Shown here: in pieces, positions 2-3,929 of the stretch
Layout of the letters: every line of letters begins with the position of its first letter
Numbering within the stretch: position 1 is the stretch's first letter
Assembly (NCBI GenBank): GCA_021792815.1
Contig: JAJYTX010000167.1
Coordinates: 1-6,538, forward strand
Direction: 5' to 3'
Length of the DNA stretch: 6,538 nt
Source: Pseudomonadota bacterium
GTDB taxonomy: Bacteria > Pseudomonadota > Gammaproteobacteria > Steroidobacterales > Steroidobacteraceae
Translations under genes and position numbers: made by a program
Notes under the pieces: generated by a model
What the model was told of the DNA's origin: nothing
The model's database searches: none
The model's input: only the letters and a program-made list of their open reading frames with translations

Positions 2-130
2 GATCATCCTCGCGCTCCGGGCCGCCTCAGCGGCAATCCGCCCCGGTATACAGCTCCGCCGATCTTCCCCGGCGCCTACGCGCTCATGCAGCTCGGCGCA
101 AGGACGGGGTTTGCGGAGTCCTTACGGTAG
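2..130 (+). CDS. Possible C-terminal tail of an unidentified protein, cut by the left edge
   Basis: A frame open from base 2 to a TAG at 128-130 encodes 42 residues ending ...IFPGAYALMQLGARTGFAESLR. Of the three plus frames open here, this one has the highest share of G/C at third codon positions and the most protein-like composition, so I prefer it. The other two frames stay open to about 282-287 but give arginine/serine-rich, unlikely proteins. I recognise no family. If real, it would be the last gene of the element that ends at the tRNA remnant. The call is weak because random open frames of this length are common in GC-rich DNA. Confidence 0.2.
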   Translation, partial: DHPRAPGRLSGNPPRYTAPPIFPGAYALMQLGARTGFAESLR

Positions 131-333
131 GATCGGCGACGGGCATGGTGGCACCCCTTCCCGGTGTTGCTTGCCCGGCCCCCGTCGGTGTTCGTTCCGC
201 CGGCGAGGGCCGATTTCTGCCACACTATTGCCACACTTGGTGCCTCAAATTGGCACCAGTGGCCGCCGCTTCACACCACTAAGTGATTGAGTTTATTGGA
301 GTCTAGTGGCGTCCATGAGGGGCTCGGCTCGGC
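131..333. other. Non-coding stretch, probable attachment-site arm of an integrated element
   Basis: I see no convincing gene here. The stretch holds two direct copies of TGCCACACT (218-226 and 229-237, period 11). It also has a perfect 7+7 inverted repeat, TGGTGCC (238-244) and GGCACCA (252-258), and a further TGGCACC at 149-155. A locally A+T-richer segment at about 280-300 follows. Short direct repeats of this type next to a tRNA 3' end resemble the arm-type binding sites of tyrosine-recombinase integrases. That assignment is inference from layout. No integrase gene is visible in this window. Confidence 0.4.
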
Positions 334-360
334 TTCGAACCAGGTGGTCGGGGGTTCGAA
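334..360. repeat. 8+8 inverted repeat at the tRNA-fragment boundary (candidate recombination core)
   Basis: TTCGAACC at 334-341 is the exact reverse complement of GGTTCGAA at 353-360, separated by 11 nt. The right arm is part of the tRNA T-arm. The left arm lies in the flanking DNA, where a tRNA would carry its anticodon-arm sequence. Two inverted arms around a short spacer is the geometry of a tyrosine-recombinase core site. I infer this role from layout only. Confidence 0.4.
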
Positions 361-377
361 TCCCTCCGGGCGCGCCA
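342..377 (+). pseudogene. Detached 3' end of a tRNA gene, probably tRNA-Arg (likely attR/attL core)
   Basis: A complete T-arm is present: stem GGGGG at 350-354, loop TTCGAAT at 355-361, stem CCCTC at 362-366. It is followed by a 7-nt acceptor 3' strand, CGGGCGC (367-373), discriminator G (374) and CCA (375-377). The matching 5' acceptor strand GCGCCCG, D-arm and anticodon arm are absent upstream, so this is not a functional tRNA. An acceptor of the GCGCCCG...CGGGCGC-G-CCA type is typical of gammaproteobacterial tRNA-Arg, hence the isotype call. Detached tRNA 3' ends are the usual hallmark of integrase-mediated insertion of a genomic island or prophage into a tRNA gene. The intact tRNA should lie at the element's other end, outside this window. 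Confidence 0.7.
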
Positions 378-479
378 ACTCAAAGGATGGGACTGCCCAG
401 CCAGTGGAGAGTCGGGGGTTCGACAAAATTGCCTGGAGCGATTTTGAACGCGGCGTAGCCGCGGCCCCGCAGGGGCGAG
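361..479 (+). repeat. Tandem repeat, copy 1 (tRNA 3' end plus hairpin element)
   Basis: These 119 bases match 501-619 with only four differences (410/550, 430/570, 433/573, 456/596), at a period of 140. The unit begins with the last 17 bases of the tRNA (TCCCTCCGGGCGCGCCA). It runs through a 33-bp tRNA-flanking segment, a 13-base copy of the T-arm start at 411-423, and then a set of hairpins. The 21 bases between copies (480-500) are only partly matched after the second copy. The repeat is non-coding. Open frames crossing it give the familiar spurious translation of tRNA 3' ends. Confidence 0.85.
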
Positions 480-499
480 TCCCAGGGACGGGGCGAGTA
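424..499 (+). repeat. Multi-hairpin palindromic element, copy 1 (interrupts a T-loop copy)
   Basis: Consecutive inverted repeats are packed into 76 bases. CAAAATTGC (424-432) pairs with GCGATTTTG (438-446) over a 5-nt loop with one G-T wobble. CGCGGC (449-454) pairs with GCCGCG (458-463) over a 3-nt loop. GCCCC pairs with GGGGC just after that, over loop GCA. The element lies between GTCGGGGGTTCGA (411-423) and ATCCCTCC (from 500), exactly where the uninterrupted tRNA T-arm at 347-367 has no extra bases. It looks like a REP-like or other small palindromic insertion. I cannot name the family. Confidence 0.6.
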
Positions 500-500
500 A

Positions 501-619
501 TCCCTCCGGGCGCGCCAACTCAAAGGATGGGACTGCCCAGCCAGTGGAGGGTCGGGGGTTCGACAAAATCGCGTGGAGCGATTTTGAACGCGGCGCAGCC
601 GCGGCCCCGCAGGGGCGAG
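501..619 (+). repeat. Tandem repeat, copy 2
   Basis: This is the second copy of the 119-base unit at 361-479. It starts again with the 17-base tRNA 3' end, now without a T-arm in front of it. After 619 the match to copy 1 decays: a few bases of AGGGACG remain, and then the stop codon of the minus-strand DUF2845 gene follows at 633-635. The repeat therefore forms the immediate 3' flank of that gene and may act on its transcript end. Confidence 0.85.
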
Positions 620-627
620 AAGGGACG
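564..627 (+). repeat. Multi-hairpin palindromic element, copy 2 (3' end diverged)
   Basis: This carries the same hairpin series as 424-499. CAAAATCGC (564-572) and GCGATTTTG (578-586) now pair perfectly, followed by CGCGGC-GCA-GCCGCG and GCCCC-GCA-GGGGC. The A4/T4 flanks of the first stem make it resemble a short bidirectional intrinsic terminator for the minus-strand gene ending at 633, although its GC core is only four pairs. The right end is truncated or diverged compared with copy 1. Confidence 0.5.
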
Positions 628-632
628 TAGAT

Positions 633-2375: not shown

Positions 2376-3929
2376 ATGGCGAAATCGGGCAACTGCTCCC
2401 CGGCAGACAGACGCTTCCTCGACGTGAGCCTGCGCGATGTGTCGCTCAGCCGCGGTGGGCGGCTGGTGCTCGACGGGGTGAGCTGGATGATCCGGCCCGG
2501 CGAGCGATGGGTGCTCGCCGGCGCGAACGGGGCTGGCAAGACCCAGTTGCTGAAGCTGGTTGCGGGCGCCGTCTGGCCGACGCCGGGCCGCGACGCGCGA
2601 CAGTACCGTTGGAAGGGTGAAGTGTGGCGGACCCCGCGGGAAGTGCAGGATGAAATCGGCTATCTGGGGCCGGAGCGCCAGGACAAGTATGAGCGCTACG
2701 GCTGGAACCACACCGCCGAGGAGGTGGTCGGCACCGGTCTGTTCCGCACCGACATCCCGCTCGAGATTCCGGAGGCGGCCGATCGGCAGCGCGTCGCGGC
2801 GATGCTGCGCCGGCTGCGGATCGAGCCGCTCGGATCGCGGCGCTTCCTCACCTTGTCCTACGGCGAGCGGCGTCTGACGCTGCTGGCGCGGACCCTGATC
2901 TCCCGCCCGAAGCTGCTGCTGCTCGATGAGCTGTTGAATGGCCTCGACGATGCCAATCGGAAACGCGCGCTGCGATGGTTGGAAAGCACCGCCCGCTCAC
3001 GCCTGCCCTGGGTGCTGTCCACCCACCGGGCCGAGGATGTGCCGTCCTCGGCCACCCACGCCCTGGTGCTCGAGCACGGCCGCGTGAGGTATCGCGGTGC
3101 CCTGCCCGGTGTCCCCCTCGAGCGGTGGCTGGGGGCGATGGGTGCTCATGCGGGGCGATCGCGCGCGGCCGCCAAGGGTGGCGCCCCGGCGCGGACCGCC
3201 GGGGGCAGACAGCGTACCCGCCGACCGCGGCTTCGCGGCGCGGTGCTGGTGCGTCTGAGCAATGCCAGCATTCATCTCGACGGGCACCCGGCTCTGCACG
3301 ATATATCGTTGACGGTCCGCTCAGGGGAGTGCTGGGTGGTGCACGGGCACAATGGCGCCGGCAAGACCACATTGGTGAGGACGCTCTATGGGGATCACGG
3401 CGTCGCGGCTGGAGGACGTATCGAGCGTGCCGGTATCGGTCCCGGCGTACCCTTGCAGCAGTTCAAGCGGCGCGTCGGGCTGGTCGCGCCGCATCTGCAG
3501 ACCGACCTGCCGCAGGACCTGTCGGTCAGCGAGCTCGTGCAGTCTGGCCGGTATGCGAGCGTCGGCCTGAACGAGCCGCCGACCGCGGCCGATCGCGCGG
3601 CGGCGCGCCGCGCGTTGGCGCTGTTCGGCCTGCAGACGCTCGCGACACGCACGCTCCGGGAGCTGTCCTACGGACAGCTGCGCAGAGTGCTGTTTGCCCG
3701 GGCCTGGGTGTGCCCTCCGGCGATGCTGCTGCTCGATGAGCCTTTCTCAGGGCTCGACGGGCCGACGCAGCGCGAGCTGCTCGAGCGGCTCGAGCCGCAG
3801 GTGGCCGAGGGGACCGCAGTCGTCATGACCGTGCATCGACGGTCGGAGTGGCCCGGCTTTTGCACTCACGAGCTCGAGCTCGCGCATGGCCGCGTGCGTT
3901 ACGCGGGGCCGGCGCGAGCGCTGAGCTAG
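2376..3929 (+). CDS. ModF-like ABC ATPase with two nucleotide-binding domains, no membrane part
   Basis: This encodes 517 aa with two complete ABC cassettes and no membrane segments. Domain 1 has Walker A GANGAGKT (49-56), Q-loop Q102, signature LSYGE (160-164), Walker B LLLLDE (180-185) and H-loop H217. Domain 2 has GHNGAGKT (324-331), Q375, LSYGQ (430-434), LLLDEP (451-456) and H487. All ATP-binding and hydrolysis residues are present in both. Length and arrangement resemble E. coli ModF/PhrA (about 490 aa), a soluble twin ATPase of poorly known function linked by location to molybdate transport. No mod genes are present here. A basic linker (about 258-288, rich in Arg, Ala and Gly) joins the halves and could contact nucleic acid, so an ABC-F-like role cannot be excluded, though ABC-F hallmarks are not obvious. 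The ATG start lacks a clear Shine-Dalgarno. The 3' end shares CTAG with the convergent PhzF gene. Confidence 0.85.
   Translation: MAKSGNCSPADRRFLDVSLRDVSLSRGGRLVLDGVSWMIRPGERWVLAGANGAGKTQLLKLVAGAVWPTPGRDARQYRWKGEVWRTPREVQDEIGYLGPERQDKYERYGWNHTAEEVVGTGLFRTDIPLEIPEAADRQRVAAMLRRLRIEPLGSRRFLTLSYGERRLTLLARTLISRPKLLLLDELLNGLDDANRKRALRWLESTARSRLPWVLSTHRAEDVPSSATHALVLEHGRVRYRGALPGVPLERWLGAMGAHAGRSRAAAKGGAPARTAGGRQRTRRPRLRGAVLVRLSNASIHLDGHPALHDISLTVRSGECWVVHGHNGAGKTTLVRTLYGDHGVAAGGRIERAGIGPGVPLQQFKRRVGLVAPHLQTDLPQDLSVSELVQSGRYASVGLNEPPTAADRAAARRALALFGLQTLATRTLRELSYGQLRRVLFARAWVCPPAMLLLDEPFSGLDGPTQRELLERLEPQVAEGTAVVMTVHRRSEWPGFCTHELELAHGRVRYAGPARALS

What the first reader, a model, noticed from the sequence alone, without database searches (positions are those of the whole stretch)
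347..632. tRNA T-loop repeat interrupted by a 76-nt multi-hairpin element
The 13-mer GTCGGGGGTTCGA occurs at 347, 411 and 551. The first spacing is 64. The second is 140, which is 64 + 76. At 347-377 the T-arm continues directly into ATCCCTCCGGGCGCGCCA. At 411 the same T-loop is broken after TTCGA by 76 bases of stacked hairpins and then resumes with the same ATCCCTCC sequence. The third copy is also broken at the same base, by the same element. The simplest reading is a small palindromic element that inserted precisely in a T-loop of a duplicated tRNA 3' end, followed by tandem duplication. I do not recognise it as a described REP, MITE or attC family.
Basis: partly seen in the sequence, partly recalled or inferred. 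Interest (0 to 1): 0.7.

Follow-up and report, generated by a model that had tools for sequence, protein, structure and literature searches.

The report
Hairpin element inside tRNA-tail repeats
A small four-hairpin DNA element sits exactly in the T-loop of spare copies of a tRNA's 3' end; it belongs to a scattered, probably mobile family in related bacteria and resembles the long-known but unexplained RtT repeats behind a tRNA gene of E. coli.

Summary
In detail: GTCGGGGGTTCGA at 347, 411 and 551; the first copy continues into a tRNA-Arg(UCG) 3' end, the other two are split after TTCGA by a four-hairpin element E (424-499; 564-619, truncated).
Its hairpins covary. In a skewed sample of 92 copies, 24 sit in tRNA T-loops, all in sense orientation, and 21 directly after NTGA; 14 of those 21 read in frame into the next gene. 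So E is not T-loop-specific.
The 140-base unit has the layout of E. coli RtT RNA: tRNA, linker, GGTTCGA, hairpin array ending GAGTA, ATCC...CCA. The E model hits three of the four K-12 RtT repeats end to end, yet the window scores only 14.8 bits against RtT (cut-off 45) and 31.2 against AaHKsRNA22 (cut-off 39.8), so it is a curated member of neither.
Best reading: a mobile hairpin element in T-loops of tRNA-tail duplicates, amplified in tandem. The mobilising enzyme is unknown.

The parts
125..330 (+). Probable end of an integrative element sitting at tRNA-Arg(UCG) (inference; no integrase seen here)
   Evidence: Region 125-378 recurs at 97.7% in G010; 127-378 at 98.8% in G070 and 89.7% in G037, with no further similarity to the window in those loci; 87.0% in G003, whose locus also resembles window 2474-3580; 126-345 at 90.0% in G067; also in G007
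331..377 (+). att-like core: 3' part of tRNA-Arg(UCG) from the anticodon arm to CCA, T-loop uninterrupted
   Evidence: RF00005 30.1 bits, 5'-truncated; 47-48 nt identical with tRNA-Arg(UCG) genes of relatives
378..410 (+). Linker between tRNA 3' end and second T-arm
   Evidence: Sequence; counterpart in G007 (L120)
411..423 (+). T5': second copy of the T-arm 5' half, GTCGGGGGTTCGA
   Evidence: Sequence
424..499 (+). Element E, copy 1: four hairpins (424-446, 449-463, 464-476, 479-494), right after TTCGA, ends GAGTA
   Evidence: R1 92.5 bits, full length (this copy is one of the 13 sequences R1 was built from); fold -37.1 kcal/mol, z -2.80; covariation
500..517 (+). T3': tRNA-Arg 3' end ATCCCTCCGGGCGCGCCA resumed
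   Evidence: Sequence
518..550 (+). Second copy of the linker
   Evidence: 360-423 and 500-563 differ at one base
551..563 (+). T5', third copy
   Evidence: Sequence
564..619 (+). Element E, copy 2, truncated before hairpin 4
   Evidence: R1 67.8 bits over 564-638; direct repeat ends at 619

Best explanation
Window 331-619 is the downstream tail of a tRNA-Arg(UCG) site carrying two tandem RtT-like units. Each unit is a spare copy of the tRNA's T-arm and 3' end whose T-loop is split by one copy of a short (about 75 nt) hairpin element, E; the second copy is truncated. Shown: the anatomy; the dispersal of E; its conserved structure; insertion with no target-site duplication beyond at most one base, mostly at [G/C]A|A; sense orientation in T-loops; the same layout at other tRNAs and in E. 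coli RttR. Inferred: E moves (enzyme unknown) into T-loops of tRNA copies. Only cells that keep an intact tRNA survive, so it is seen in redundant tRNA 3' ends next to intact genes; misalignment between the direct repeats then makes tandem arrays. Elsewhere E survives where about 75 in-frame bases are harmless, notably directly after ATGA start/stop overlaps. Resident units keep their hairpins and often an exact tRNA 3' end, by gene conversion with the tRNA or by selection on the transcribed tail; which of the two is open.
For: Dispersal: R1 in 25 of 60 relatives, seven genomes with 13-64 copies. Same family inside and outside T-loops: within G038 and G037, T-loop and other copies are up to 96% identical while their 25-nt flanks are 42-57% identical. 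Structure: 11 of 25 pairs with two-sided changes in A1 (shuffle mean 4.1, slid controls 1-5); 15 of 25 in 14 copies at the Arg-CCG tail (shuffle mean 8.5, slid 1-4; that alignment was fitted to the model). T-loops: 24 of 92 copies, all sense, 0 antisense although TTCGAA reads the same on both strands (several are orthologues, so not independent); 13 of 80 when only copies sampled through R1 count. tRNA link: 21 of 25 pattern places lie behind tRNA-Arg 3' ends; 17 run straight into E's left end, 4 into other hairpin-rich sequence, 0 into ATCC. Exact tRNA 3' end after E in 10 of 14 Arg-CCG loci (exact match is what the script sought) while linkers have median identity 0.60. Loci without E: pta interval of G012 and G080; GatB matched in 58 of 60 genomes, aligned from residue 1, through the E-encoded part, in 3; junction GCATGA|GCGGC without and GCATGA|E|CCGGC with E. 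Nested copies, CCA|E|AAA in an older E (by eye). RtT layout: three of four K-12 RtT repeats hit by R1 over positions 1-75 at 27.3, 25.8 and 24.7 bits. A 175-bp VNTR is listed for rtT RNA in a Salmonella comparison (PMC2658671, passage).
Against: No mobilising enzyme found; Y1 transposases do not track copy number. The whole 119-nt unit folds no better than shuffles (z -0.37); E alone does (z -1.81 to -3.87 for six copies). RtT's outer stem, complementary to the tRNA 3' end, has p<0.05 in 4 of 4 K-12 units, 2 of 3 Gln and 4 of 8 Ser units but in 0 of 13 Arg units, the window's p being 0.70. The fourth K-12 RtT repeat is not hit by R1 at E<=10. E. coli shows a median of 3 places per genome at blastn sensitivity, so RttR is not visibly dispersed there. 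Several T-loop copies are closest to T-loop copies of other genomes, and gatB carries decayed-looking copies, which fits long residence rather than recent movement. Four of 14 Arg-CCG loci show no exact tRNA 3' end after E.
Confidence: 0.7

Rival explanations
1. Functional tail RNA: the unit is an RtT-type RNA co-transcribed with the tRNA, and E is its structural domain; selection, not element mobility, keeps it behind tRNA genes, and scattered copies are escaped by-products.
For: RtT matches across the class of G002: 23 of 143 genomes at E<=1e-4, 7 over cut-off; 10 of 12 loci examined show T5|array|T3 behind a Ser, Gln or Tyr tRNA with the same 3' end (the model and the exact-match script both select for this shape). 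Compensatory changes at one tRNA tail.
Against: Up to 64 copies per genome, 68 of 92 sampled ones outside T-loops; linker and outer stem are not conserved; loci without the unit exist. No expression data here.
Confidence: 0.27
2. Ordinary REP element mobilised by a Y1 (RAYT, TnpA-REP) transposase.
For: Small, palindromic, no clear target duplication; in-frame insertions are known for REP/RPE families (passages of PMC3733652, and PMC10969869).
Against: Y1_Tnp in 2 of the 7 genomes with at least 13 copies (in one of them as two adjacent pieces, one with a stop) against 18 of 53 others; four hairpins rather than one tagged hairpin.
Confidence: 0.08
3. att-site by-product: the T-arm copies are leftovers of integrase crossovers in the T-loop, and E later landed in them.
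For: 331-377 looks like an att core with an element end before it; an ORF that by eye looks like an integrase start lies behind the unit in L050 (not tested); G080's pta interval has a lone GGTTCGA.
Against: 0 of 21 second GGTTCGA places behind tRNA-Arg continue into ATCC; the two pta intervals without E have no second tRNA 3' end; 14 of the 23 T-loop copies listed have a whole tRNA gene by ARAGORN shortly upstream of E, and one more (L113) shortly downstream.
Confidence: 0.12
4. Likeness to RtT and AaHKsRNA22 is convergence of GC-rich hairpin arrays, not kinship.
For: R1 scores are modest (24.7-27.3 bits for RttR; 24.9-39 in the genomes); the fourth RtT repeat is missed; in L198, L199 and L201, which have other T-loop arrays, R1 finds nothing better than E 0.4.
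Against: The three RttR matches run from model position 1 to 75 and start and stop exactly at the T-loop break; 35 of 60 related genomes have no R1 hit at E<=0.01. A hairpin-array null was not run.
Confidence: 0.3

Closest known systems
RtT / RttR RNA (Rfam RF00391), tyrT-tyrV tail of E. coli
   Same: tRNA, linker, (A)GGTTCG[AG], hairpin array ending GAGTA/GAATA, ATCC...CCA of the same tRNA, in tandem repeats; the RtT model matches the Ser units of L061 and L062 over the whole unit at 35.8 and 35.4 bits
   Different: Window 14.8 bits against a cut-off of 45; other tRNA; no outer stem in the window; array 76 nt against 68 in the three RttR repeats hit; E is scattered through relatives' genomes, RttR is not visibly so in E. 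coli
AaHKsRNA22 (Rfam RF02902), Pasteurellaceae
   Same: ACAAAA hairpin, GAACG, two GC hairpins, GAG, hairpin, GAGTA; many dispersed copies
   Different: 31.2 bits against 39.8; there copies mostly follow AAGTGCGGT, which I recall as the uptake signal, not a T-arm
Rickettsia palindromic elements and other REPs inserted in genes
   Same: Small palindromic repeats read in frame in coding genes (passages of PMC10969869 and PMC3733652)
   Different: Here the in-frame copies counted are at the start codon overlap; sequence kinship was not tested
RtT-like BIMEs upstream of enterobacterial genes
   Same: Dispersed repeats with similarity to rtT reported in PMC2965389 (passages)
   Different: Not compared with E here

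Membership tests
RtT RNA (RF00391) | Rfam score of at least 45 bits | tested here: not met
   14.8 bits, window 399-517
RtT RNA (RF00391) | Repeat ending in the 3' end of the adjacent tRNA, behind that tRNA | tested here: met
   360-377 and 500-517 identical; in the window only the att-like tRNA copy, not a whole gene, precedes
RtT RNA (RF00391) | Outer stem pairing the tRNA 3' end with sequence before the array | tested here: not met
   Window own score 10, shuffle mean 10.6, p 0.70; p 0.003 or less in 4 of 4 K-12 units
RtT RNA (RF00391) | Stable RNA released from the tRNA transcript | not testable with these tools
   No expression data; the 1991 report is known here only as cited in PMC2965389 and was not held
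AaHKsRNA22 (RF02902) | Rfam score of at least 39.8 bits | tested here: not met
   31.2 bits for copy 1, 22.9-25.1 for copy 2
REP with RAYT (Y1) transposase | Y1 transposase associated with the repeat | tested here: inconclusive
   Y1_Tnp in 2 of 7 copy-rich genomes against 18 of 53 others; genomes may be incomplete, and flanking of a Y1 gene by E was not tested
MITE | Target-site duplication | tested here: not met
   None beyond one ambiguous base at the T-loop, gatB junction and nested sites
MITE | Terminal inverted repeats | tested here: inconclusive
   Ends CAAAA and GAGTA are not inverted, read by eye only
tRNA gene | Whole tRNA fold | tested here: not met
   ARAGORN finds none in the window

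The most novel reading that the evidence does not exclude
E. coli RtT, Aggregatibacter sRNA 22 and this element belong to one gammaproteobacterial superfamily of mobile hairpin arrays that enters tRNA T-loops in sense orientation and start/stop overlaps in frame; tRNA-tail units with an array in place of the T-loop are then a class-wide family that Rfam's RtT model only partly captures.
Probability: 0.45. Interest if true: 0.78.

Novelty: new variant of a known kind. Interest (0 to 1): 0.62.

Why it matters
RtT was reported in 1991 as a by-product of one E. coli tRNA operon. If its array is a mobile element lodged in the T-loop of a spare tRNA 3' end, its origin becomes testable, as do two puzzles: how a tiny element enters tRNA genes without killing the cell, and how it slips in frame into essential genes at coupled start/stop sites.

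Tried and rejected
Own assembly of the window: not held. Viral contigs: two element patterns gave 0 matches; the first could not have matched the window itself, the second could. Plasmids and phages: the matches listed (20 of 86 and 20 of 115 records) end within query position 79, before E begins. Y1 transposase as mover: no association. Structure of the whole 119-nt unit: not better than shuffles. A tRNA-like outer stem for the window: rejected, though it holds for other tRNAs. G003 as an orthologous pta locus without E: no pta match in its fetched locus, so not counted. Conservation of the tRNA 3' end after E as a measured 100%: withdrawn, since the script sought the exact sequence; what stands is that 10 of 14 loci have it. 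For that reason the tail-RNA rival went from 0.30 to 0.27; no other odds were changed in checking. Papers: searches listed no paper that I saw joining RtT with T-loop insertion; PMC2965389 already notes RtT-like repeats upstream of several enterobacterial genes and files them as BIMEs. Only passages were seen of PMC10969869, PMC12306157, PMC3733652, PMC7657543, PMC8250186, PMC2965389 and PMC2658671; of the others only search listings.

Sampling and dropped rows: of 96 R1 hits in 84 chosen sources I kept 92; dropped were L080 (same place as L109) and three weak tandem second copies (L148:1741, L154:1583, L149:1794). The sources were best-scoring places, whose list was cut, one place each for several low-copy genomes, and loci, whose query included tRNA flanks and so favours T-loop copies; hence the separate count of 13 of 80. 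Pfam was run on 7 of the 14 in-frame proteins, two of them the same gene. One search lists 23 T-loop copies, one search counts 24 because its expression also takes GTTCGG (L070, second copy). One search covered 12 of the 41 RtT matches listed; L267 and L275 showed no such unit in it. GatB loci: 30 of 58 were fetched, of which 8 did not match the anchor of the script.

Full report
OBSERVATION. The repeat is as described. 331-377 is the 3' part of tRNA-Arg(UCG) with an uninterrupted T-loop; 411-423 and 551-563 repeat its T-arm 5' half, each followed after TTCGA by the array E (76 nt at 424-499; the second truncated at about 619). ARAGORN finds no whole tRNA. The DNA before it (125-330) is probably the end of an integrative element: it recurs in G010, G070 and G037 with no further similarity to the window in those loci, in G003 (whose locus also resembles window 2474-3580), in G067 (126-345 only) and in G007. 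So 331-377 is probably an att copy, and the units lie on the host side, which continues into a Pta-like gene (by eye from the ORF list).

THE ELEMENT. E folds into four hairpins with GA-type spacers, -37.1 kcal/mol, z -2.80; five other T-loop copies have z -1.81 to -3.87. Thirteen copies from the window and relatives give 11 of 25 pairs with two-sided changes, more than in any of 500 shuffles (mean 4.1) and than in slid pairings (1-5). Fourteen copies at the tRNA-Arg(CCG) tail (one of them, L095, from a more divergent genome) give 15 of 25 (shuffle mean 8.5; slid 1-4), in an alignment fitted to the model. Such shuffles ignore kinship of the sequences. Against the orthologous copy in G007 the window's hairpin 2 differs by two compensated pairs (CGCGGC/GCCGCG, CGGCGC/GCGCCG, read by eye).

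DISPERSAL AND TARGETS. A covariance model (R1) hits 25 of 60 relatives of G002 at E<=0.01; seven have 13 to 64 copies. G002 is the genome of L015, titled a Gammaproteobacteria MAG; the kinship of the other handles is not told. In the 92 copies kept (60 regions plus earlier loci; hits; see the sampling note), -1 is A in 82, -2 is G or C in 88, +1 is A in 59; in the 38 copies outside the named classes the figures are 31, 35 and 25. Classes: 24 T-loop, 21 after NTGA (17 ATGA, 4 GTGA), 5 nested in E, 4 tandem, 38 other. All 24 T-loop copies are in sense orientation, none antisense, though several are orthologues. By eye, two T-loop copies sit in degraded, longer tRNA copies upstream of an intact gene (L070 Gln, L113 Arg), and L100 has E in what reads as a tRNA-Ser D-loop. 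Within G038 and G037, T-loop and other copies are up to 96% identical with 25-nt flanks 42-57% identical. Others of the 24 T-loop copies are closest to T-loop copies of other genomes.

START/STOP SITES. Of 21 NTGA copies, 14 have an upstream ORF of at least 100 aa ending there and a downstream ORF of at least 100 aa reading in frame through E from the overlapping start; two more read in frame but lack a long upstream ORF, one is at a contig end, four do not read through. Seven of the 14 proteins were scanned and all seven have a Pfam domain beyond the E-encoded part; in GatB it starts at residue 31, profile position 1. GatB was matched in 58 of 60 genomes; only G002, G017 and G038 align from residue 1. 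The junctions with and without E read GCATGA|E|CCGGC and GCATGA|GCGGC; L241, L245, L246 and L251 keep what look by eye like decayed copies, so at this site E may be old.

tRNA TAILS. A pattern blind to E (Arg 3' end, 20-50 nt, GGTTCGA) gave 25 places in 22 of 196 genomes. By reading the sequences, 21 lie behind tRNA-Arg 3' ends: 17 run straight into E's left end, some of them truncated copies; 4 (L198, L199, L201, L202) into other hairpin-rich sequence, in L202 one hairpin before an R1-like element; 4 places are not tRNA-linked; none of the 21 continues into ATCC. Of 14 Arg-CCG loci, 10 have an exact tRNA 3' end after E (the script sought the exact sequence); linker median identity is 0.60. 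The pta interval of G012 and G080 lacks E and a second tRNA 3' end; G080's has one lone GGTTCGA. Duplication and insertion thus go together in what I could see.

KNOWN RELATIVES. K-12 RttR repeats read (A)GGTTCG[AG], array, GAGTA (GAATA in the fourth), ATCCTTCCCCCACCACCA. Rfam's RtT model finds four; R1 hits three of them over positions 1-75 at 27.3, 25.8 and 24.7 bits and misses the fourth. RtT's own model is far below cut-off for the window (14.8 of 45), below it for two Ser units (35.8, 35.4) and over it in 7 of 143 genomes of the class of G002, E. coli being the only one of 14 control genomes. In 10 of 12 loci fetched there a script found T5|array|T3 behind a Ser, Gln or Tyr tRNA with the same 3' end (model and script both select for this shape). 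AaHKsRNA22 gives 31.2 bits (cut-off 39.8). R1 at E<=0.1 finds 2 to 11 copies in 4 of 5 genomes titled as Pasteurellaceae members (by name, recalled) and 1 in one titled Pseudomonas stutzeri. RtT's outer stem has p<0.05 in 4 of 4 Tyr, 2 of 3 Gln and 4 of 8 Ser units, in 0 of 13 Arg units. PMC2965389 (passages) reports RtT-like dispersed repeats in Enterobacteria; PMC7657543 (passage) a tandem GA motif in RtT; PMC2658671 (table passage) a 175-bp VNTR at rtT RNA.

MECHANISM. Inferred: E enters mostly at [G/C]A|A with no duplication beyond at most one base; T-loop insertions survive only where an intact tRNA remains; direct repeats then expand or shrink the array; in genes mainly in-frame positions at coupled starts are tolerated. 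The mover is unknown; Y1 transposases are not associated. Whether the tail RNA has a function is open.

VERDICT.

Noticed in passing
window 125-378: Conserved probable end of an integrative element at tRNA-Arg(UCG), found in G010, G070, G037, G003, G007 and in part G067.
   Followed up: partly
L198, L199, L201, L202: Hairpin arrays in T-loop position behind tRNA-Arg in other genomes; those of L202 (three tandem copies) match R1 at 28-30 bits, the others do not.
   Followed up: partly
L144, L146, L159, L123: E copies of a GAACGCCCG-type subfamily nested antisense at the same place inside older E copies.
   Followed up: no
L051, L011 and other Pasteurellaceae loci: The related element follows AAGTGCGGT (recalled as the uptake signal) and in L051 lies between inverted copies of it, like a terminator loop.
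   Followed up: no
L119, L130, L141, L152, L153, L160, L161: A larger composite around E in G038, G037 and G034: a GGCCGCGC-like stretch before E and a further GC hairpin after it.
   Followed up: no
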